DNA of 64,000 nucleotides from a bacterium (GTDB lineage: Bacteria > Orphanbacterota > Orphanbacteria > Orphanbacterales > Orphanbacteraceae), in assembly GCA_025782575.1 (NCBI GenBank), contig JALGYY010000028.1:62001-126000 (forward strand), given 5' to 3'. Of this stretch, positions 53,060-63,860 are shown piece after piece. The stretch's first letter is position 1, and each line of letters begins with the position of its first letter. The notes beneath the pieces were generated by a model. The model was not told the DNA's origin, did no database searches, and saw only the letters and a program-made list of their open reading frames with translations. Both the position numbers and the translations under genes were made by a program.

Positions 53060-53704
53060 ATGGATCCTCTGGAAATTATCGCTGCCACGGCGGACCCTTC
53101 GTTTGCGACAGACGAAGGTGGTCGCGTTGTAATCTGGAACCCGGCGGTAGAACGTCTGCTCGGCTACAGAGCCCAGGACGTCCTGGGCCGGTCTTGTCAT
53201 GAGGTCATCTGCGGCCGGGATATATTCGGAAACCGCTTCTGTGTCGAACTCTGCACGATCATGAGCATGGTTCAGCGTGGTGAAGGGATCCGCCGGTTCG
53301 AACTGGATGTCCGAAAGTCATCAAGCGAGGTCTTTCGCGCGTCAATCACAATTGTTGTGATACCGGGGCCGCGAGAATCACAGTTCACCATCGTTCACAT
53401 CATCCTCCCTCTTGAAGGGGATTCGGCCCGATCGGCCGTTCCGGTCGTTGGTCCTGAACCCGGGTTGTCCATTCCGATTCCTGACGAAGGCGAGTCGCTT
53501 ACTGAGCCGGTCTCGCCGCTGACGGCACGAGAACTCGAGGTACTTCGTCTGATGGCCAAAGGGACGAGTACCCGCGAGATCGCTGACGCCCTGTTCATCA
53601 GTATTGCCACCGTCCGGAACCACGTTCAGCACATTCTGAGCAAGCTCGATGCTCACAGCAAACTCGAAGCAGTAGCCCTCGCTCTTCAGAATCGCCTCAT
53701 CTGA
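53060..53704 (+). CDS. PAS-LuxR transcriptional regulator with four clustered cysteines
   Basis: 214 residues. Residues of about 5-115 are a PAS domain (ATADPSFATDEGGRVVIWNP, AVERLLGYRAQDVLGRSC). Inside it, C46-x4-C51-x9-C61-x3-C65 (CHEVICGRDIFGNRFCVELC) could bind a metal or Fe-S cluster or act as a thiol switch. Residues of about 150-208 are a LuxR/GerE helix-turn-helix (LTARELEVLRLMAKGTSTRE, VRNHVQHILSKLDAHSKLEA). No receiver domain. It stands just upstream of the electron-transfer operon, in the same direction, with a palindrome between them, and is its probable regulator. Confidence 0.88.
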   Translation: MDPLEIIAATADPSFATDEGGRVVIWNPAVERLLGYRAQDVLGRSCHEVICGRDIFGNRFCVELCTIMSMVQRGEGIRRFELDVRKSSSEVFRASITIVVIPGPRESQFTIVHIILPLEGDSARSAVPVVGPEPGLSIPIPDEGESLTEPVSPLTARELEVLRLMAKGTSTREIADALFISIATVRNHVQHILSKLDAHSKLEAVALALQNRLI

Positions 53705-53831: not shown

Positions 53832-55343
53832 ATGAGTTATTCGCGACGCTTGAAATACAACGCTTTCGCCGGATTCCACCTGTGGGGGATGGCCTTCATT
53901 CTTGTCTGTACCGCGCTCTGGACGAGTCCCGCCGAAGCCACTCCGGCGTTTGCCCGGAAGTACGGAACCAGTTGTCTGACGTGCCACATCGTCTATCCTA
54001 AGCTGAACGCCTACGGAAATGCCTTCCGGCTCCTTGGTTACCAATTACCTGATGAGACCGAGGACATGATCAAGCAGCCCGATACCAAATTGGGGGCCGA
54101 GGCGTACAAAAGAGTTTGGCCGGATGCCGTCTGGCCGAACTCCATCCCCTCCAGCCTCCCCTTCGCCCTCGCGACTGAATTCTTGGTGCGAAGCAGCTCT
54201 GAAGCTGAGGGCGGACCCGATGTCAACAGTGACTTCCTCTTTCCCTCGGGCACGGAAATAATCGCTGCCGGCACAGCGGGCGACAATATCGCCTACTTCG
54301 GAGAGATCGCTTTTGAAACCGAAGTCGAAGAGGGGAGTTTCGAGAGCAAAGCATTTATCCCGCATATCGATATTCGTTTTGTTCGACTGATCAAGAATTC
54401 GCCCGTCCTGAACGTCAAAGTCGGCCTGTTCCAACCTGAGATGGTAGTTGCCTTTGACCATGCACGGCGGCTGACGATCGCCAACTACGACGCCATGTTC
54501 GGTGTATCTACTGCCCAGCCGGGTGGCGGTTCTGAGGTTGGTGGTGGCGGGCACCACGGCGGGGGAGGAGGCATATCACTTCCAGCTGTCGCCCGCGGGT
54601 TAGAGTTCTATGGCGTCGCTGCCCAACGTTTCCAGTGGTCCGCTGCCGTCGTAAACGGTTTCGAACCGGGCGTGGAGACATTCGACGCTAATTCAGGTAA
54701 GGACCTGATGGGGAGGATCGCCTACAAGTATGGCGGTATGGCTCTCGACGGGTCGAATGCAACAACGTATACGACGAGCTCGAAGAACTGGCGAGAGCGC
54801 TCCATTCAGGTCGGCATATTCGGTTATCGCGGAGACGGCAAGGGGGTGCTTCTCAACGCTCCGGCGGCTCATGAAGACGAACACGATCTCAAGCTCGCCG
54901 CCGATGACCCCCCGACGGTTGTGGAAGACGAAGATTTCACCCGAGTCGGAATCGATTTCAATCTCTTCTTCGGCGATCTCAATCTTTTTGGTGCCTATGT
55001 CCACGGCGAAGACGACCTTCGTGATCCGACGGCGGGATCGGGGGACGACCACGAGGATGATCATGTTGAGAAGGTCAGCAACGAGGACGAATTCTTCGGG
55101 ACATTTGAATACGATGCGTTCTTCCTCGAGGCTGACGCCGTTCTGCACTATCCGTGGCTGCAAGGAATTCTGCGATACGAAATGGTCGATTTCCCCGACA
55201 GAGACATCGACAAATACGAGAAGGGTATTTTCTCCGTCGTGGCCCTGGTCAGGGCAAACGTCAAAGCGATCTTTGAGCATGACAGGGATCTGAATGAGTC
55301 AGAGAACTGGGACCTGTGGTGGGGAACCGCGATCGCCTTCTAA
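53832..55343 (+). CDS. Cyc2-like monohaem cytochrome c / outer-membrane porin fusion
   Basis: 503 residues from ATG 53832, five bases after AGGGAG. The signal peptide ends near AEA (residue 36). One c-haem site follows at C48-x2-C51-H52 in ATPAFARKYGTSCLTCH, then YPKLNAYGNAFRLLGYQLP, close to the N-terminal pattern of Cyc2-type iron oxidases. The remaining 400 or so residues are alternating beta-strands ending in WWGTAIAF, with the C-terminal Phe expected for BAM insertion. Three loops are unusually rich in Gly/His or Asp/Glu/His. It would carry electrons across the outer membrane. Electron donor and direction are unknown. Confidence 0.78.
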   Translation: MSYSRRLKYNAFAGFHLWGMAFILVCTALWTSPAEATPAFARKYGTSCLTCHIVYPKLNAYGNAFRLLGYQLPDETEDMIKQPDTKLGAEAYKRVWPDAVWPNSIPSSLPFALATEFLVRSSSEAEGGPDVNSDFLFPSGTEIIAAGTAGDNIAYFGEIAFETEVEEGSFESKAFIPHIDIRFVRLIKNSPVLNVKVGLFQPEMVVAFDHARRLTIANYDAMFGVSTAQPGGGSEVGGGGHHGGGGGISLPAVARGLEFYGVAAQRFQWSAAVVNGFEPGVETFDANSGKDLMGRIAYKYGGMALDGSNATTYTTSSKNWRERSIQVGIFGYRGDGKGVLLNAPAAHEDEHDLKLAADDPPTVVEDEDFTRVGIDFNLFFGDLNLFGAYVHGEDDLRDPTAGSGDDHEDDHVEKVSNEDEFFGTFEYDAFFLEADAVLHYPWLQGILRYEMVDFPDRDIDKYEKGIFSVVALVRANVKAIFEHDRDLNESENWDLWWGTAIAF

Positions 55344-55359: not shown

Positions 55360-55956
55360 ATGAAACCCAACATCAAACTCGGCTTGACCGTACTTGTTGC
55401 TGCTCTGGCGCTGGCATCAGGGGCCAGCGCGGGCTCCCTTGTCGGAAAGGTGATCTGCAAAGGTCTTCGCAGCAGTGCGAACGCCATTGTCTACGTTGAC
55501 GTAATCCCCGGAAGGACATACGAAGCACCGGAAGCCCACGCCCTCGTGGACCAGAAGAATATGGTGTTCGAACCTCATGTTCTGCCGGTAATCGAGGGTA
55601 CATCAGTCGACTTCCTGAACAGTGATCCGGTGTTACACAATGTTTTTTCGCCCGACAAATGTGCTCAGAAATTCAATCTGGGGAGCTGGCCGCAGGATGA
55701 GAAGCGCAGCTTCACTTTCGAAGAGCGGTGTGTTTCTACCATTCTTTGCAGGGTACATCCCGAAATGGAGGCCTATATCCTTGTCGTCCCGACGCCCTTT
55801 TATGCGGTAACGGCAGAGGATGGAACGTTCTTCATTGCGGACGTTCCCGACACGGTTCTGACAGTGAAGGCCTGGCACCCGAAGCTCAAGGAACAGGATC
55901 TCGAGGTTCTGGTCGCGGGAGATAGCGTCTCGGTGGAGTTCGTACTGAAACGCTAG
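55360..55956 (+). CDS. Secreted cupredoxin (MauL-like blue copper protein)
   Basis: 198 residues from ATG 55360; the ribosome site AAGGAGAGG overlaps the preceding stop. Signal peptide about 1-24. Type I copper ligands are visible: His93 (DPVLHNVFS) and Cys130-x2-His133-x2-Met136 (TILCRVHPEMEAYILV). The C-terminal 60 or so residues form a carboxypeptidase-regulatory-like beta domain (FYAVTAEDGTFFIADVPDTV). MauL-like cupredoxins are periplasmic one-electron carriers. Its place right after the cytochrome-porin suggests it shuttles electrons between that protein and inner-membrane cytochromes. Confidence 0.85.
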   Translation: MKPNIKLGLTVLVAALALASGASAGSLVGKVICKGLRSSANAIVYVDVIPGRTYEAPEAHALVDQKNMVFEPHVLPVIEGTSVDFLNSDPVLHNVFSPDKCAQKFNLGSWPQDEKRSFTFEERCVSTILCRVHPEMEAYILVVPTPFYAVTAEDGTFFIADVPDTVLTVKAWHPKLKEQDLEVLVAGDSVSVEFVLKR

Positions 55957-55965
55957 TGGAGACGT

Positions 55966-57837
55966 ATGATGGGGGAGCGGGTTAATCGCGAATGGCTCAA
56001 GAGCAATTTCCCTTGCCACGCTGCGTGTCCGGTAGGGACCGAAGCGGGACGGTATGTCGCTCTCATCGCGGAAGGACGATACCGGGAGGCGTACGCCGTC
56101 GCCCGCCGCCCCAATCCGCTGGCGTCCATATGCGGCCGTATCTGCTCTGCTCCGTGTGAGAGCGTCTGCCGGCGGAGCGAGGTCGATTCGCCGGTAGCGA
56201 TTCGAGCGCTGAAGCGGTTCATCACCGAACGGTTCGGGGTGGAAAGCATGATCGACCTGGAGGTTCTTCGCGAGATTTATGGAAAGCGCGGGGTGCAGCA
56301 TCCAGACGACAGAGTCGCCGTCATCGGAGCCGGCCCCGCAGGACTTTCCGCCGCCCATGACCTTGCCTTGCGCGGTTATCCTGTCACTCTTTTTGAAGCC
56401 CAACCGGTTGCCGGAGGCATGCTCCGGCTCGGCATTCCCGAGTACCGCCTCCCTAGAGAGCTTATCAAACTCGAGGTCAACGCGATTCTCTCCCTCGGCG
56501 TCGATCTGCTCGTCGGTCAGCGGCTCGGGCGCGACTTTTCCATCAGCAGTCTTCGGGAGCAGGGTTATAAGGCGATCTTTCTCGCAGTGGGCGCGCAACG
56601 CAGCCGGGACCTCCAGCTACCAGGTGTCGACCTGGACGGTGTCATGAAGGGTGTCGAATTTCTTCTGAATGCCAATATGGGCTACCGGGTGGAACTGGGG
56701 GATAAGGTCGTCATCCTCGGCGGAGGCAATGTCGCCATTGATGTAGCTCGTATGGCGTTACGCTCCAATCTACCGGAGGACGCGATCAATCCCAGTATCA
56801 ACATCGTAACGGCGCTCGACGTCGCCCGTTCGGCCGTTCGATTCGGCGCCAAGGAGATTCACGTCGTCTGTCTCGAGTCACAGGAGGAAATGCCGGCGGC
56901 TCCGGAAGAGATCGAAGAAGCAGGTCGCGAGGGAATCATCTTTCATCATCGCCGTGGTCCGTCTCGCATCCTGGGGCAGAATGGCCGCGTCACCGGTCTC
57001 GAGACAGTAGAATGCGTTTCTGTCTTCGACCAGCATGGCAAGTTCAATCCCCGTTTCGCGGAAGGGAGCGAGCTTTCCATGGCCGCTGACACCGTTATCA
57101 TGGCGATCGGACAGGTCGCCGATCTCTCATTCCTGGAACCGGATGACGGGATCGAGATCACCCCCATGAAGACGATCGGCATAAACCACGAGACATTGGC
57201 GACGAGTGCTCCCGGGGTCTATGCGGGTGGCGACGCCGCTTTCGGGCCGCGGATCGCCATCGAAGCTGTTGCCGACGGTCGCCGTGCCGCAACCTCAATT
57301 CATGAGTATCTGCGAGGATCGACTGAGCCGGCAGAGGCGGTGGAGGTCATTCTGCGGCCCCTTCCAGGGTTCAAGCGCGAACTCGACTATGAGGCCCTCC
57401 CCCGGCAGAACCCTCCGAAGCTCCCTATCGCCCGGAGAGTCGGCATCGCCGAGGTGGAGCAATGTTACACCGAGGAAACGGCGCGACGCGAAGCCTCACG
57501 CTGCTTCCGCTGCTGGATCAACACCACTTTCCGCGAAGATTTCGTGACGGGAAGCGAGTGCATCCTATGCGGGGGGTGTGCTGACGTTTGCCCGGAAGAC
57601 TGCATCGAGTTCGTCCCGGTTTCGGAAGTGTCTGCGGATCCTCTCTTGCTGGAGGATGCCGTCGCGGAATTCGGAGAAGCTGCGAATTCGCTCTTCGAGG
57701 AGAACGCTGTCGGCACGGTTCTAGTCAAGGACGAGACGGCGTGCATTCGATGCGGCCTCTGTGCCGCACGTTGTCCGGCCTCGATCATCACAATGGAGGA
57801 GTTTATTCTGGAGGATCGATCGTATGGAACCGCATGA
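55966..57837 (+). CDS. GltD/NfnB-like FAD oxidoreductase with added 2[4Fe-4S] ferredoxin domain
   Basis: 623 residues. The N-terminal Cys pattern of GltD-type Fe-S domains is present (FPCHAACPVG, SICGRICSAPCESVCRR). FAD site VAVIGAGPAGLSAAHDLALRG at about residue 117; second nucleotide site VVILGGGNVAIDVARMALR at about 248; FAD C-terminal motif GVYAGGDAAFGPRIAIEAVADG. Two ferredoxin motifs follow: CILCGGCADVCPEDC and CIRCGLCAARCPASI. It lacks a signal, so it is cytoplasmic. The gene overlaps the Rieske gene by 14 bases, which implies a functional tie to the quinol:cytochrome c complex, perhaps linking NAD(P)H to it. Confidence 0.9.
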   Translation: MMGERVNREWLKSNFPCHAACPVGTEAGRYVALIAEGRYREAYAVARRPNPLASICGRICSAPCESVCRRSEVDSPVAIRALKRFITERFGVESMIDLEVLREIYGKRGVQHPDDRVAVIGAGPAGLSAAHDLALRGYPVTLFEAQPVAGGMLRLGIPEYRLPRELIKLEVNAILSLGVDLLVGQRLGRDFSISSLREQGYKAIFLAVGAQRSRDLQLPGVDLDGVMKGVEFLLNANMGYRVELGDKVVILGGGNVAIDVARMALRSNLPEDAINPSINIVTALDVARSAVRFGAKEIHVVCLESQEEMPAAPEEIEEAGREGIIFHHRRGPSRILGQNGRVTGLETVECVSVFDQHGKFNPRFAEGSELSMAADTVIMAIGQVADLSFLEPDDGIEITPMKTIGINHETLATSAPGVYAGGDAAFGPRIAIEAVADGRRAATSIHEYLRGSTEPAEAVEVILRPLPGFKRELDYEALPRQNPPKLPIARRVGIAEVEQCYTEETARREASRCFRCWINTTFREDFVTGSECILCGGCADVCPEDCIEFVPVSEVSADPLLLEDAVAEFGEAANSLFEENAVGTVLVKDETACIRCGLCAARCPASIITMEEFILEDRSYGTA

Positions 57838-58303
57838 AGATAAGAACAAAGGCGATCTTTCGCGACGGAAGTTCTTCCAGACGGCGGGAATCACGGCTTG
57901 CGCGCTTGTCTCAGGGGGAGCATCGATCCTGGGATTTGATTTCCTTCGCCCCCGCGTGCTCTTTGAACTTCCGACCAAGTTCACCCTTACTCGCCCTGAT
58001 GCCATCGAAGTCGGATCGGTCATAACGGACGAGCCGCACCACGTCTATGTGGCCCGCTCTTCCCATGGTTTTCGAGCCCTCTCTTCTGTATGCACACACC
58101 TCGGTTGCATTACGCGCTACAGCCCGGATGAGGGGATCATCGCGTGCCCCTGCCACGGCAGCAAATTCGCGCTCGACGGGGAAGTGATCGCCGGTCCGGC
58201 GCCTCGGCCGCTCCCCTGTCTCCAACTGGATCTCTCCCCGAGCGGGTTGATAGTCGTGGATACATCGATCGAAGTGCCGCAGGAAACGGTATTCAAGCTC
58301 TAA
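57824..58303 (+). CDS. Rieske [2Fe-2S] protein
   Basis: 159 residues from ATG 57824, GGAGG upstream, within the 3' end of the flavoprotein gene. A Tat-like signal ([20 protein letters not shown]) doubles as membrane anchor. Cluster ligands: CTHLGC and CPCHGS. The residue that is Tyr in high-potential Rieske proteins (CPCHGSxY) is Phe here (CPCHGSKF), which lowers potential and fits a menaquinol-oxidising complex. It transfers electrons from quinol at the Qo site to cytochrome c. Confidence 0.94.
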
Positions 58304-58313
58304 GGAGCATGAT

Positions 58314-59045
58314 GTGAAATTGGAAAAAATGATCACAGGTAGCCGCGTGTGGCGCTCGATCGTACGCCACGGGGTGGAGCCGACGAACAGGAATCGTGTT
58401 CTGACAGTAGTTCAGAATGTTTTCCTTCACCTTCATTCCGCCAAGGTGCGTCGAAGAAATCTGGAGTTCTCCAGCACATACTATCTCGGGGCCGTCTCGC
58501 TGATCCTCTTCGCGATTCTTGTCGGTACCGGGATCGTTCTGATGATTTACTATCACCCTTCTGTACCACAAGCCTACAATGACATGAAGGAACTCAAGTT
58601 CGTCGTAGGCAGCGGTATGTTCCTTCGCAATATGCACAGGTGGGCTGCTCACGGTATGGTGATCGTCGTCTTCCTCCACCTTCTTCGTGTTTTCTATCAC
58701 AGAGCGTACAAACCGCCGCGGGAGTTCAACTGGGTTGTCGGCATTGTCCTGCTGCTCATGACTCTGCTCCTCAGCTATACCGGCTATCTTCTTCCGTGGG
58801 ATCAGCTCGCGTTCTGGGCGGTATCGGTCGGCACGAACATGGTGAAAGCTGTGCCCGTACTCGGGGACAGGATCCGCTATCTCCTTCTCGGAGGGAACGT
58901 CGTCGGGGAGAGCGCGCTTCTTCGTTTCTATGTGCTTCATTGCGTGATCCTTCCCCTTGCGCTCACTATCGGAGTGGGGGTTCATCTCTGGCGCGTACGG
59001 AAGGATGGTAGCGTGGCCGGATCGTCCGGGAGGAAGCGAGGATGA
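58314..59045 (+). CDS. petB: Cytochrome b6-type subunit (N-terminal half of cytochrome b)
   Basis: 243 residues from GTG 58314. Four membrane helices. Haem b ligands are in [20 protein letters not shown] (helix B) and in [20 protein letters not shown] (helix D), where 14 residues separate the two His, as in b6f rather than bc1 proteins. [20 protein letters not shown] is the Qo-side cd region. It binds two b haems and quinones in the inner membrane. The stop overlaps the next start by four bases. Confidence 0.93.
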
Positions 59046-59755
59046 GAAAGGAACCGTCATCGAGCCAGGAACTCCGGAAGTCTGACGATGCAAGAGGGAT
59101 GCCGCGCCGGATCGCACTCGTCCGGCGGGAAGCCCCCGCCCAATTGCTCGAAGATCGGAGCGAACTCGTCACGACCGCACCGCACCTGCTGCTCCGTGAG
59201 GTCATCGTCTTCCAGATATGCGTGATCGTTCTCGCGATCGTCTCGATATTATTTGACGCTCCTCTCGAGGGTATCGCCGATCCCGAACACACGCCGAACC
59301 CGGCGAAAGCCCCGTGGTATTTCCTCGGACTTCAAGAGCTGCTCCACTACTTCCCCCCCATCGTTGCCGGAGTGCTGATTCCCGGTCTCGTCGTCCTCGC
59401 AATAGGTGTGATGCCCTACTTCCGGGTGAACTGGGAGTCAACAGGGCTCTACGAGCAACCGTGGAAGAAAACCATTGCCCTGGTAAGTGGTATCGTCGCC
59501 GTCTCCGTGGTGATCTTCGTCATATTCCACACCTGGGTGGTGCTCGTGCCCACGCTGGTTATTTATGGGTTGATGATTCTGCCCGGCCTCCCGTTCTGCC
59601 CCGCTCGCTTGAGGGGCGTTCTCGGACGTGTTCACCTGGCCGATTGGATCATGACCTGGTTCGTCATCGTTGCAATTCTCCTGACGTTGACGGGTGTTTT
59701 CTTCCGTGGCCCCGGATGGAGCTTTGTCTGGCCGTGGCAGGGAGGTACCCAGTGA
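59042..59755 (+). CDS. petD: Cytochrome b C-terminal half (subunit IV-like)
   Basis: 237 residues. A charged N-terminal 50 residues precede the conserved DPLE-like segment ([20 protein letters not shown], then [14 protein letters not shown]), the Qo-site ef loop. The usual PEWY motif is APWY here, lacking the Glu. Three to five membrane helices follow, more than the three of chloroplast subunit IV. With the preceding gene it makes a complete split cytochrome b. Its stop (59753-59755) overlaps the start of the octahaem cytochrome. Confidence 0.88.
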
Positions 59756-61752
59756 TGAGGAACGACGGGGGTGGTCTCGATCGGATCTGGTTCTGGTTCG
59801 CGGCGATGAGCTTTGTCTTCCTGGTGGTGCTCGCCATCTCTCCCATCAAAGATTATTTTCGAGAGTATCGGAAGTATCAGATTGACTATCGGGATCAATT
59901 ACTCGAACGAGCCGGCACATCGAGGGAGCTTCGCGACGCCAATCGTGAGGGTGTGCGAATTCGACAGATCTGGAATCCTGACTATCCCAACCGCGTCGAC
60001 CGATGCACCTCGTGCCATCTGGGTGTCGAAAACCCAGGCATGGCGGATGCATCTCCGCCGCTTCGCACTCACCCGATGACGCCGCACACGCCAGAGCAAT
60101 TCGCATCCTTTGGCTGTGTCACATGTCATCGCGGTCAGGGGCGTGCAACGACAATGATGGATGCACATGGGCTCGCTTCCGACTGGGCGACACCCATGCT
60201 TCCGCTCCGTTATACGGAAGCTTCCTGCGGCACCTGCCATATGGACGAGGAAGTGCCCGAAGCAAACCTTCTCTCTCGAGGCCGGACGTTAATGGCGGAA
60301 CTCGGGTGCTATGCGTGCCACGAGGTCGATGGACATGAGGCGTGGGAAAGTGACGCCCCCGATCTGGACGGTCTGTCCCGAAAGACGTCTCCCGAGTGGC
60401 TGAGAACATGGATTGCTGACCCGCAGAGCGTCCGTCCGACAACGAAAATGCCATACATCCAACTCGGGCAGAGCGAAATCGATTCTCTCGTCGCGTTCCT
60501 CTGGACGCGGCCGGCCGGTGAAGACGATTTTCTGCAGGACGAGGAAAACCCGGCCGGCGATCCTGACCGGGGGGAGACGCTGTTTCGGGAATCACGATGC
60601 ATCTCCTGTCACACCGTTGATGGTCGAGGAAACGGAAGCGCGGCGGAGCTTTCCGGCATCGCTTCCAAGGTCAACAGGCGCTGGCTCATAGAATACCTCG
60701 AAAACCCGCACGCGCTTCAGCCGGAAACCAAGATGCCGCGCTACTATTTCACGCGGCAGGATCTCCTCGATCTAAGCCAATATTTGATGGACGAACTCTG
60801 GGATCCGGAAGCACCTCCTCCTGTAGAGCAAGCATTCCGCCCGCCCCAGAAGATGGTGGAAGGGGGGATGCGCACCTTCCGGAAATACGGGTGCTCCGGT
60901 TGCCATCAGATCTCCGGATTGACCGATCGATCGAGGATCGGTCCTGAACTGACCGGTATCGGCCGAAAGCCTGTGGATCAGCTTGACTTCGGACGGCGCG
61001 ACGATCTTCCGCGAACGCTTCACGACTGGATCGGGGCGAAGGTCTCGAGTCCTCGATCATTTCGGGATGGTCTCAAGATGCCGCAGTTCATACTGGAGGG
61101 GGAGGATCTGACTGCTGTGATTACTGCGCTCCTCTCGAACACGGGGGAAGTCATCCCCGAGGAATACCGGGTAGAGAGGGTGATCGCGAACTATGATCCT
61201 CCCGGTCGTTTCGGTGAGCTGGTCGATCGCTACCGGTGTCTCTCCTGCCATGAGGTGGAGGGTGTCGGGGGGGACATCTCGACCGCACCACTTACTGTCG
61301 AGGGAAGCCGCGTCCAGGAATCGTGGCTGAAGAATTACCTTCTCCGACCTTCGACGATTCGTCCGATCCTGACGGATCGCATGATTCCTCTCCGGATGCC
61401 TGAGGAAGACGCGGCATTCCTCGCGAATTTCATGCAGAACGTCTATGTGGATGACGACATCCCCGCCCGCCTCTTTTCAGAAGAACCCGATCCTGCGAAT
61501 GTTCGCCGGGGTAGTCACCTCTTCTACGAGAGGTACGGTTGCCAGGCGTGTCACATGATCGATGGGCGAGGTGGCTATTTCGGGCCACTCCTCGATGAAG
61601 CGGGGGTTCGTCTGAAGCCGGGATGGGTCTACTGGTGGGTTCTCGGCTCACAGAGATGGCGCGACGATGTCCGGTGCCCCGACTACGGAGTACCAGATAG
61701 AGACGCCTTGGATCTTGCGGCCTTCATTTCATCACTAGGGAGAACCCCATGA
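59755..61752 (+). CDS. Membrane-anchored octahaem c-type cytochrome
   Basis: 665 residues from ATG 59755, nine bases after GGAGG (GTG 59752 is an alternative). One N-terminal membrane helix (WFWFAAMSFVFLVVLAI). Eight CxxCH sites: CTSCH, CVTCH, CGTCH, CYACH, CISCH, CSGCH, CLSCH and CQACH. Four or five repeated class I cytochrome c units (GxxLFxxxxCxxCHxxxG...TKMPxxxL) make up the rest, separated by Pro-rich linkers. It replaces cytochrome f or c1 as electron acceptor of the complex and could act as a periplasmic wire. Overlaps the next gene (ATGA). Confidence 0.9.
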   Translation: MRNDGGGLDRIWFWFAAMSFVFLVVLAISPIKDYFREYRKYQIDYRDQLLERAGTSRELRDANREGVRIRQIWNPDYPNRVDRCTSCHLGVENPGMADASPPLRTHPMTPHTPEQFASFGCVTCHRGQGRATTMMDAHGLASDWATPMLPLRYTEASCGTCHMDEEVPEANLLSRGRTLMAELGCYACHEVDGHEAWESDAPDLDGLSRKTSPEWLRTWIADPQSVRPTTKMPYIQLGQSEIDSLVAFLWTRPAGEDDFLQDEENPAGDPDRGETLFRESRCISCHTVDGRGNGSAAELSGIASKVNRRWLIEYLENPHALQPETKMPRYYFTRQDLLDLSQYLMDELWDPEAPPPVEQAFRPPQKMVEGGMRTFRKYGCSGCHQISGLTDRSRIGPELTGIGRKPVDQLDFGRRDDLPRTLHDWIGAKVSSPRSFRDGLKMPQFILEGEDLTAVITALLSNTGEVIPEEYRVERVIANYDPPGRFGELVDRYRCLSCHEVEGVGGDISTAPLTVEGSRVQESWLKNYLLRPSTIRPILTDRMIPLRMPEEDAAFLANFMQNVYVDDDIPARLFSEEPDPANVRRGSHLFYERYGCQACHMIDGRGGYFGPLLDEAGVRLKPGWVYWWVLGSQRWRDDVRCPDYGVPDRDALDLAAFISSLGRTP

Positions 61753-62237
61753 GGAAGACCACCAGGATCCTCGTCTATCTCGCTGTCGGGTTCGGTTTTG
61801 TGTTGGCCTGGCTCCCGGCAGGACGAAGTCTTCTCTTCGGAAGCGATCCGACAGACATAGACATGAACGACTCTCTTCAGACTGAAGACATTATTACGGA
61901 TGATGCCTGGAGAACGCCCATTCCGGACTTAGGTTACCGCGAGCGGGAAGGCCGGGCTCTCTTTCGCCACTATTGTGCCCTGTGCCACGGGCAGAGCGGC
62001 GAGGGGGACGGGTTCAACGCCTACAACCTCGATCCTAAGCCGCGTGATCTCTCCGACCATGAGTTCCAGACGGCACAAACAGACGAGGACCTTGCGGAAG
62101 TCATCGGGGGTGGTGGTGGCGATGCCGGTCTCTCGAACGCCATGCCCCCTTGGGGAAAGGTCCTTGGTGAGCGGAAGATCGGCTATGTCATCGCCTACTT
62201 GAGGACGCTGGCGGACTCGTTGCCGGAGACCGACTAG
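61749..62237 (+). CDS. Monohaem class I cytochrome c
   Basis: 162 residues from ATG 61749. A signal or anchor helix (ILVYLAVGFGFVLAWLPAG) is followed by one c-haem site, GRALFRHYCALCHGQSGEGDGFNAYNLDPKPRDLSD in parts, and the likely Met ligand in NAMPPWGKVLG near the C-terminus. It is a probable periplasmic electron carrier, the last gene of the operon. Confidence 0.92.
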   Translation: MRKTTRILVYLAVGFGFVLAWLPAGRSLLFGSDPTDIDMNDSLQTEDIITDDAWRTPIPDLGYREREGRALFRHYCALCHGQSGEGDGFNAYNLDPKPRDLSDHEFQTAQTDEDLAEVIGGGGGDAGLSNAMPPWGKVLGERKIGYVIAYLRTLADSLPETD

Positions 62238-62372: not shown

Positions 62373-62651
62373 ATGGCACACCTCATTCGCGACAAGAAGA
62401 AGCTTCTCAATCGAGTACATCGAATTCGGGGCCAGCTCGATGCCATTGAGCGAGATCTGGAAGAAGGGCGCGACTGCACATCGACACTGCAGACGATCGC
62501 GGCCTGCCGTGGAGCGATGAACGGCCTCATGTCGCAGGTACTGGAAGGGCACATCCGGTTCCACGTAGTAGATCCGGACTTGAAGCCCACTTCTGAGCAG
62601 GCAAAAGCCGCACAGGAATTGATCGACGTGATCCGGACCTACCTGAGGTAG
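62373..62651 (+). CDS. RcnR-like metal-responsive repressor (CsoR/RcnR family)
   Basis: 92 residues, all helical. The family core is RVHRIRGQLDAIERDL and AACRGAMNGLMSQVLEGHI. The four Ni/Co ligands of E. coli RcnR are all in place: His3, Cys35, His60 and His64. That set argues for nickel/cobalt sensing rather than Cu (CsoR) or formaldehyde (FrmR). The start follows AAGGGG. The gene has an operator-like site in its promoter and heads the efflux genes that follow, six bases to the next ATG. Confidence 0.9.
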   Translation: MAHLIRDKKKLLNRVHRIRGQLDAIERDLEEGRDCTSTLQTIAACRGAMNGLMSQVLEGHIRFHVVDPDLKPTSEQAKAAQELIDVIRTYLR

Positions 62652-62657
62652 TTGAAT

Positions 62658-63860
62658 ATGAAGCACTGCATTTGGTTCGCAATCGCAATCGCCACAGCCC
62701 TGCCGGCTGAGGCCAACGAAGGACGATTCTCTGAGGAGCGGTTCCTGGCGCCGTTAACAGAGGGGCACCCGGCGATCGTAGCGCTCACGGAGCGCCTTGC
62801 GGGCGCGGAGGGTGAGCGACGGGAGGCAAGGGTGATGAACCCGGAGTTCGGATTTGACCGAGAGGCGCCGGACGGAGCGGCCAATCAGTCAGTTTTCCGG
62901 TTGAGCTGGAAGCCGCCGTTGGATGGACGTAGCGGGTTGCGGAAGCGTGCGGCAGACGCCGGTGTGCGTGCGGCCACAAGTGAGTTCGACTGGGCAAAGT
63001 TGCAATTACGGGAAGAGCTTCGAAGCGCATACGCCGAGTGGGCGCAGGCGGCAGAGCGGCGCGATCTCTTGTCCGCGCATGTGACCGTGATGAAGCGGTT
63101 AGCCGAGCGGGCAAGAGTGCGGGCGGAAACCGGGGAAGAGTCGGGGCTCGGTGCGCGGAGGCTCGCGCTTGCCGCTACCGAGGTGCAGAGCAAATTCGCT
63201 CAGGCCGAAGCAATGTTCGTTCTCGGAGAAGCAAAAGTACGGGTTGTTTACCCGGAGCTCCGACAGGGCGTTCAGCCGATTCGGCCTGCACTGCCTGTGG
63301 TGCCACCGAAACTAGACTGGTCGAATCGGCCGGACATTGAAGTGAGGCGTTTCGAAGTGCAACAAGCGGAGTTGAAGAAGCGGTTGAGTGGCCGATATTT
63401 GGAATTTCCAGAGCTCACCGCGGGATGGACTCGTTTTGACGAGGCACCCGGCATAGTTGAAGGTCCCGTGCTCGGAGTGAGCTGGAGTGTACCGATTTTT
63501 GATCGTAATCAGGGTAGACGCCAACAGGACGCTCGAAAAGTAGTTATCGCTGAGGCCAGACTCGAGCTTGCAATCGCTACAGCGCAGGCAGAGTTGGAAG
63601 CGGCGCATGGCGCCTACGCGCTGCTCCGGGCGGCGGCCACCGAGGTGACGACCGTTACGGAAGACGCAGACGGACTTGTGGAGAGCGCAACGGCCTCTTT
63701 TCAGGTCGGTGAGAACACGCTGACGGATCTGATGGAGACACTTCGCTCCGTTCTAAGCAGTCAGATTACTGCAATGGAACTTCACTACAACGCACTTGAG
63801 GCGCACCGTCACTTGGAACTGAGCGCGGGAAGGTCTCTGAGTACCGGAGGTATGGAATGA
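62658..63860 (+). CDS. TolC/CzcC-family outer-membrane efflux protein
   Basis: 400 residues from ATG 62658, nine bases after GAGG (TTG 62652 is an alternative). Signal peptide about 1-20. Two OEP repeats of long coiled helices (LREELRSAYAEWAQAAERRD, and LELAIATAQAELEAAHGAYALLRAA in parts) alternate with beta segments (VLGVSWSVPIFDRNQGRRQQDARKV in parts). It forms the outer-membrane tunnel of an RND metal pump. Overlaps the adaptor gene by four bases. Confidence 0.9.
   Translation: MKHCIWFAIAIATALPAEANEGRFSEERFLAPLTEGHPAIVALTERLAGAEGERREARVMNPEFGFDREAPDGAANQSVFRLSWKPPLDGRSGLRKRAADAGVRAATSEFDWAKLQLREELRSAYAEWAQAAERRDLLSAHVTVMKRLAERARVRAETGEESGLGARRLALAATEVQSKFAQAEAMFVLGEAKVRVVYPELRQGVQPIRPALPVVPPKLDWSNRPDIEVRRFEVQQAELKKRLSGRYLEFPELTAGWTRFDEAPGIVEGPVLGVSWSVPIFDRNQGRRQQDARKVVIAEARLELAIATAQAELEAAHGAYALLRAAATEVTTVTEDADGLVESATASFQVGENTLTDLMETLRSVLSSQITAMELHYNALEAHRHLELSAGRSLSTGGME

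What the first reader, a model, noticed from the sequence alone, without database searches (positions are those of the whole stretch)
55966..58303. GltD-like flavoprotein translationally overlapped with a Rieske gene
A NAD(P)H-type FAD/Fe-S enzyme with two extra ferredoxin clusters overlaps the Rieske gene by 14 bases. This suggests a subunit relation between a cytoplasmic pyridine-nucleotide module and a quinol:cytochrome c complex. It might form an NAD(P)H-linked or bifurcating partner of the complex.
Basis: inference. Interest (0 to 1): 0.62.

Follow-up and report, generated by a model that had tools for sequence, protein, structure and literature searches.

The report
NAD-linked Rieske/cytochrome b respiratory complex
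The flavoprotein is almost certainly a subunit of an unusual membrane respiratory complex that links quinol, cytochromes and NAD(H); a similar complex is known from ammonium-oxidising anammox bacteria, but this version is a separate, widespread lineage that sits next to a gene for a possible outer-membrane electron-uptake protein.

Summary
A 623-aa GltD/NfnB-like FAD/Fe-S protein (55966-57837) overlaps a Rieske gene (57824-58303) by 14 bases. Split b6-type cytochrome b, subunit IV, an octahaem c and a monohaem c follow; a cupredoxin and a Cyc2-like porin-cytochrome precede. The kind is known: Kuenenia Kustd1480-1485 and Kuste4569-4574 have the same anatomy, and NAD(P)+ reduction by quinol bifurcation has been proposed for them (PMC12954380). 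The window is not a copy of those. Its flavoprotein belongs to a separate clade (single origin rejected, p = 0.0017). It carries an NAD-type Glu304 where Kuenenia's carry NADP-type Arg-Arg. Its cytochrome b keeps the His proposed to bind an extra haem b but lacks the haem cN Cys. The Cyc2-like porin and cupredoxin suggest a route to the cell surface. Most likely: an NAD-linked Rieske/b complex, probably reducing NAD+ by bifurcating quinol electrons. Direction, stoichiometry and physical assembly are inferred, not shown.

The parts
53832..55343 (+). Cyc2-like fused monohaem cytochrome-porin (503 aa incl. signal peptide); probable outer-membrane electron conduit
   Evidence: Matches the published Cyc2 motif AXPXFAR[Q/K][T/Y]...CXXCH...PXL (regex). 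AlphaFold2 model (pLDDT 64) has 16 beta strands and resembles OmpF/OprP/OprO porins, E to 3e-10. Start codon is my choice (signal peptide).
55360..55956 (+). Cupredoxin (type-1 copper protein) with a carboxypeptidase-regulatory-like C-terminus; probable periplasmic electron carrier
   Evidence: His115, Cys152, His155, Met158 (numbered from the ORF start 55294) invariant in 42/42 relatives, amicyanin-type CxxHxxM spacing; weak Pfam Copper-bind and amicyanin hits.
55966..57837 (+). GltD/NfnB-like FAD + NAD-binding + Fe-S flavoprotein; putative cytoplasmic NAD(H) module. Glu304 codon 56875-56877
   Evidence: Pfam, AF2 model pLDDT 86.6 with top PDB matches Nfn-ABC/StnABC; conserved Cys set in 40 relatives, enough for four clusters.
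57824..58303 (+). Rieske [2Fe-2S] protein with SRRKFF Tat motif; overlaps the flavoprotein gene by 14 bases
   Evidence: Pfam Rieske; best PDB hit 9rk4, E 4e-28, next 5e-16; 9rk4 identified as Kuste4569.
58314..59045 (+). Cytochrome b6-type subunit (243 aa); His39 codon 58428-58430 = Kuste4571 His43; Tyr57 codon 58482-58484 at the position of b6 Cys35
   Evidence: Pfam Cytochrome_B, alignment with Kuenenia and b6.
59042..59755 (+). Subunit IV-like protein (237 aa), hydropathy consistent with five membrane helices (one segment long enough for two)
   Evidence: Pfam Cytochrom_B_C; hydropathy.
59755..61752 (+). Octahaem c-type cytochrome with N-terminal membrane helix (8 CXXCH, 665 aa); putative acceptor of the Rieske protein
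   Evidence: Eight CXXCH, membrane segment 11-29; same family as the octahaem Kustd1485.
61749..62237 (+). Monohaem cytochrome c with N-terminal anchor/signal
   Evidence: One CXXCH, Pfam Cytochrome_CBB3; conserved in the same place in most octahaem-type loci.

Best explanation
The flavoprotein is the cytoplasmic NAD(H)-binding subunit of a membrane Rieske/cytochrome b complex with a b6-type b, a subunit IV and an octahaem c. Quinol is oxidised at the periplasmic side; one electron goes through Rieske to the octahaem/monohaem c and cupredoxin, the other is pushed through haems bP and bN, probably a haem b held between two cytochrome b subunits by His39, into the four Fe-S clusters and FAD of the flavoprotein, to reduce NAD+ to NADH. 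It works like the complex proposed for Kuenenia Kustd1480-1485, but in a separate lineage. Shown: gene set, conserved linkage, cofactor ligand residues, motifs, phylogeny. Inferred: physical assembly, NAD rather than NADP, the inter-subunit haem b, direction of flow and bifurcation.
For: Linkage in 77/80 relatives across about 15 phyla. Same subunit anatomy as two Kuenenia complexes located here by their crystallised Rieske sequences 9rk3/9rk4; for those, co-migration of the subunits of Kuste4569-4574, Rieske potentials of +303/+335 mV and a modelled cofactor wire are published. The window Rieske has the same Ser/Phe pair (CPCHGSKF) as Kustd1480, +335 mV. Conserved Cys set for four Fe-S clusters. 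Cytochrome b His39 = Kuste4571 His43, the proposed extra haem b ligand, present in essentially all FAD-linked relatives of this type. Glu304 at the end of the second Rossmann strand in all 38 non-Kuenenia rows, versus YRR in Kuenenia and nearly all other homologues. Flavoprotein recruited to such complexes at least twice (AU p = 0.0017), which argues that the coupling is functional.
Against: No biochemistry for any window-type member. His39 is also kept in relatives with no flavoprotein gene within several kb (L192-L198, L200-L206), so it is a marker of the clade, not proof of a wire; one FAD-linked subgroup (L149, L150, L154) lacks it. FAD-less relatives show that the b/c part can work alone. 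The host has two other cytochrome b loci, two haem-copper oxidases, two NuoF and no RuBisCO, so a need for uphill NADH production is not evident.
Confidence: 0.55

Rival explanations
1. Same complex, opposite or different flow: electrons from NADH enter through the flavoprotein into the b haems and leave through quinone or the octahaem c (NADH-fed quinol:cytochrome c reductase, without bifurcation).
For: All parts are compatible with either direction. The host has haem-copper oxidases and no RuBisCO, as expected of a heterotroph with ample NADH. A solitary window-type flavoprotein sits directly after nuoD-nuoG in a Methylomirabilota MAG (L063), where an NADH-oxidising role is plausible.
Against: The anammox authors argue that it would waste the energy that complex I conserves; the host has two NuoF genes.
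Confidence: 0.25
2. Reverse electron transport from the cell surface: the Cyc2-like porin takes electrons from Fe(II) or another outside donor, passes them through cupredoxin and c haems to the Rieske/b complex, which uses the proton-motive force to reduce quinone and NAD+.
For: Exact Cyc2 motif and 16-stranded barrel model in the gene two upstream; cupredoxin with full type-1 Cu ligands; both genes present together in 33 of 80 loci. The porin gene is single-copy in this genome.
Against: The strict motif occurs in only 5 of 33 relatives (32 fit a relaxed form), so Fe(II) oxidation is unsafe to assume; 42 of 80 loci show no cupredoxin and 44 no porin (some are cut by contig ends); no RuBisCO in the host.
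Confidence: 0.12
3. Not a subunit: a co-regulated soluble enzyme (glutamate synthase-like or Nfn-like) that happens to share the operon.
For: The fold family contains many soluble oxidoreductases; no membrane helix in the flavoprotein.
Against: Adjacency conserved across about 15 phyla and two independent recruitments; no gltB or Nfn partner recognised in the clusters; a Kuenenia counterpart is reported to co-migrate with its complex.
Confidence: 0.08

Closest known systems
Kuenenia stuttgartiensis Kustd1480-1485 Rieske/cytochrome b complex (proposed NAD(P)+-reducing)
   Same: Rieske, four-helix b6-type b, separate SUIV, octahaem c with 8 CXXCH, GltD-like flavoprotein with two extra ferredoxin motifs, His ligand of the proposed extra haem b, Ser/Phe pair in the Rieske protein
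   Different: Gene order (flavoprotein first here, between b and SUIV there); flavoprotein from a different clade (AU p 0.0017); Glu304 instead of YRR; no haem cN Cys (Tyr57); adjacent cupredoxin and Cyc2-like porin
Kuenenia Kuste4569-4574 complex
   Same: Closest solved Rieske protein (9rk4, E 4e-28); b, SUIV and flavoprotein present; conserved HLHP motif with His43
   Different: Hexahaem c plus HAO-like octahaem there; flavoprotein lineage and NADP-type motif differ
Octahaem Rieske/b6-type complexes of Nitrospina and Methylomirabilis; canonical b6f
   Same: Split b6 + SUIV and an octahaem c in the same operon type
   Different: No flavoprotein subunit described there; b6f has haem cN Cys35 and cytochrome f
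Flavin-based bifurcating transhydrogenases NfnI, Nfn-ABC, StnABC
   Same: Homologous FAD/NAD(P)/Fe-S subunit; best fold matches
   Different: Soluble, no cytochrome b or Rieske; bifurcation at a flavin rather than at quinol
Geobacter ext cluster (ExtO Rieske, ExtP b, ExtQ, ExtI porin)
   Same: Cytochrome b and SUIV resemble ExtP/ExtQ below the curated cut-offs; porin and multihaem c nearby
   Different: No flavoprotein described in the cluster

Membership tests
Anammox-type NAD(P)-oxidoreductase-containing Rieske/cytochrome b complex | Flavoprotein with N-terminal and C-terminal Fe-S clusters encoded with Rieske, b6-type b and SUIV | tested here: met
   same gene set located in Kuenenia
Anammox-type NAD(P)-oxidoreductase-containing Rieske/cytochrome b complex | Multihaem (hexa- or octahaem) c subunit instead of cytochrome c1/f | tested here: met
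   8 CXXCH
Anammox-type NAD(P)-oxidoreductase-containing Rieske/cytochrome b complex | SUIV with five membrane helices | tested here: inconclusive
   Four hydropathy peaks, one 29 windows long and able to hold two helices
Anammox-type NAD(P)-oxidoreductase-containing Rieske/cytochrome b complex | His ligand of the proposed inter-monomer haem b (Kuste4571 His43 / Kustd1481 His62) | tested here: met
   Window His39 aligns
Anammox-type NAD(P)-oxidoreductase-containing Rieske/cytochrome b complex | Haem cN attached to the Cys at the position of b6 Cys35 | tested here: not met
   Tyr57 in window, Cys in both Kuenenia proteins
Anammox-type NAD(P)-oxidoreductase-containing Rieske/cytochrome b complex | Flavoprotein of common descent with the Kuenenia ones as bc-linked proteins | tested here: not met
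   AU test p 0.0017; so it is filed as a separate variant that works alike, not as a member of the same lineage
Anammox-type NAD(P)-oxidoreductase-containing Rieske/cytochrome b complex | NAD(P)+ reduction by quinol bifurcation; subunits form one complex | not testable with these tools
   Needs purification and assay; the reaction is only proposed for Kuenenia too
Glutamate synthase small subunit (GltD) | Scores as GltD and is encoded with gltB | tested here: not met
   TIGR01317/01318 far below cut-off (205.6 of 447.7 and 239.3 of 482.95 bits); neighbours are bc genes, not gltB
NfnB-type bifurcating transhydrogenase subunit | NADP-binding YRR motif and NfnA partner | tested here: not met
   CLES at 302-305; neighbours are bc genes
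Cyc2 fused cytochrome-porin (gene two upstream) | AXPXFAR[Q/K][T/Y] motif, CXXCH, PXL, length above 365 aa | tested here: met
Cyc2 fused cytochrome-porin (gene two upstream) | 16-stranded porin barrel | tested here: met
   16 strands in a moderate-confidence model (pLDDT 64), porin matches
Cyc2 fused cytochrome-porin (gene two upstream) | Match to the FeGenie Cyc2 HMMs and Fe(II) oxidation | not testable with these tools
   HMMs and assays not available here

The most novel reading that the evidence does not exclude
A phylum-spanning, so far undescribed class of b6-type complexes that reduce NAD+ directly by quinol bifurcation (or by reverse flow from an outer-membrane Cyc2-like cytochrome), with an extra haem b rather than haem cN as the exit to the cytoplasm, evolved separately from the anammox complexes. 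It would be a membrane route to NADH that bypasses complex I.
Probability: 0.3. Interest if true: 0.85.

Novelty: new variant of a known kind. Interest (0 to 1): 0.6.

Why it matters
Quinol-driven NAD(P)+ reduction by a Rieske/b complex has been proposed from anammox bacteria, which are hard to grow. The survey shows that the same coupling arose at least twice and, in the window-type lineage, is present in about 15 phyla including Anaeromyxobacter sp. PSR-1 (L085), a named strain rather than a MAG. That makes the hypothesis testable by ordinary genetics and biochemistry. It also separates proposed features that persist (His of the extra haem b, four Fe-S clusters) from those that do not (haem cN Cys, NADP-type motif).

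Tried and rejected
GltD/gltB reading: rejected (family scores far below cut-off, bc neighbours). The 14-base overlap as special evidence: rejected, not conserved. Extra-haem His as a strict marker of the flavoprotein: rejected, also in FAD-less relatives. Loss of the haem cN Cys as a consequence of FAD coupling: the raw association is strong, but independent pairs on the tree gave no significance, so it is only a clade trait; the raw table also holds duplicate loci and a few loci whose flavoprotein is cut (L159, L170). RNA features: none at Rfam gathering thresholds. Autotrophy by RuBisCO: no gene found. Distances between clusters could not be measured because model coordinates are not exposed. 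Literature searches for this cluster outside anammox/Nitrospina/Methylomirabilis found none in the open-access library; Kartal 2013, ten Brink 2013 and de Almeida 2016 were read only as cited in PMC12954380.

Full report
Observation. The flavoprotein (55966-57837) and the Rieske gene (57824-58303) overlap by 14 bases as stated, with a GGAGG ahead of the Rieske ATG. The flavoprotein has a Fer4_20 domain, a pyridine-nucleotide/FAD domain and two C-terminal ferredoxin motifs. C17, C21, C60, C64, C68, C513, C516 and the eight ferredoxin Cys are among the columns invariant in 40 relatives, with C56 and C546 nearly so, enough for four clusters. Its AlphaFold2 model (pLDDT 86.6) matches the GltD-like subunits of bifurcating Nfn-ABC and StnABC best.

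Surroundings. Downstream on the same strand lie b6-type cytochrome b, SUIV, an octahaem c and a monohaem c; upstream a cupredoxin and a Cyc2-like porin-cytochrome. The closest named relative for flavoprotein (71%) and cytochrome b (75%) is a Candidatus Eisenbacteria MAG with the same eight genes, so the host is probably of that phylum. The genome also holds two COX1, two NuoF, two further Rieske/b loci and no detected RuBisCO.

Neighbourhood survey. Of the 80 best genome loci, 77 have flavoprotein, Rieske and cytochrome b on one strand (70 in the window's order, 7 with b before Rieske, mainly Chloroflexota and Actinomycetota); one is cut off after Rieske; two (L063, L068) lack them. Record titles of linked loci name Eisenbacteria, Neomarinimicrobiota, Bacteroidota, Acidobacteriota, Ignavibacteriota, Zixibacteria, KSB1, Verrucomicrobiota, Binatota, Planctomycetota, Chlorobiota, Actinomycetota, Chloroflexota, Myxococcota and Armatimonadota; MAG mis-binning could trim this list. 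In a relatives search the top hits above 330 bits are all linked and the weaker hits examined are fused or linked to other systems. The set is biased to close relatives, so the linkage figure applies to this subfamily only.

Known counterpart. Hauser et al. 2025 (PMC12954380) describe Kuenenia Kustd1480-1485 and Kuste4569-4574, with Rieske potentials +335 and +303 mV, a putative NAD(P) oxidoreductase, and an AlphaFold3-proposed extra haem b on His62/His43. I found both loci by their crystallised Rieske sequences. The window Rieske's best PDB match is 9rk4, which by its Ser-Lys-Tyr motif is Kuste4569 (E 4e-28), and the window has the Ser/Phe pair of Kustd1480.

What is the same and what differs. 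Window His39 is Kuste4571 His43; the motif is present in essentially all window-type relatives and absent from the canonical b/b6 proteins compared. It is also kept in relatives without a nearby flavoprotein (L192-L198, L200-L206) and lost in one FAD-linked Planctomycetota subgroup, so it is not proof of a wire. The haem cN Cys of b6 is Tyr57 in the window and absent in nearly all window-type members, but present in both Kuenenia proteins and most FAD-less relatives; on the tree this is a clade trait without significant independent association. At the end of the second Rossmann strand all 38 non-Kuenenia rows of the alignment have Glu (window Glu304), while Kuenenia's two have YRR like nearly all other homologues (L007 is an exception outside that alignment). 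By the usual Rossmann rule an acid here favours NAD and Arg favours NADP; this step is inference from established knowledge.

Phylogeny. Window-type flavoproteins form one group (91/97), and the Kuenenia ones fall with NfnB/NuoG/Fdh-type homologues (100/100); a single clade of all bc-linked flavoproteins is rejected (AU p 0.0017). The test was set after the first tree was seen, so the p-value is somewhat optimistic. The flavoprotein was thus probably coupled to b6-type complexes at least twice.

Mechanism. I commit to an NAD(H)-linked Rieske/b complex in which the flavoprotein is the cytoplasmic subunit (about 0.9 that it is a subunit, 0.75 that NAD(H) is the partner, 0.55 overall with bifurcating NAD+ reduction; these are judgements). 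Rivals are NADH oxidation into the complex, and reverse flow from the Cyc2-like protein. The Cyc2 reading rests on the published motif and a moderate-confidence 16-strand model; only 5 of 33 relatives carry the strict motif.

Verdict. The kind is known from anammox; this is a distinct and widespread variant.

Noticed in passing
L063:6110-11022: In a Methylomirabilota MAG a window-type flavoprotein lies directly after nuoD- and nuoG-like genes and away from bc genes, as if the module had been moved to complex I.
   Followed up: partly
L149, L150, L154: Planctomycetota complexes with flavoprotein, hexahaem c and HAO-like octahaem c whose cytochrome b lacks the N-terminal HLHP segment, beside near relatives (L144-L148, L157) with no flavoprotein and Gln at that His.
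   Followed up: partly
L207, L208 (own genome C13 and C7): Two further Rieske/cytochrome b loci next to 8- and 9-haem cytochromes in the same genome.
   Followed up: no
window 53060-53704: PAS-LuxR type regulator just upstream of the porin-cytochrome; possible regulator of the cluster.
   Followed up: no
window 62373-63860: FrmR/RcnR-like repressor followed by a TolC-like outer-membrane efflux protein downstream of the cluster.
   Followed up: no
L031, L033, L050 and similar Acidobacteriota loci: In some loci a second kind of porin-cytochrome (LPSYARQTG..C..CH..PPELN) replaces the upstream one, sometimes downstream of the monohaem c gene.
   Followed up: no
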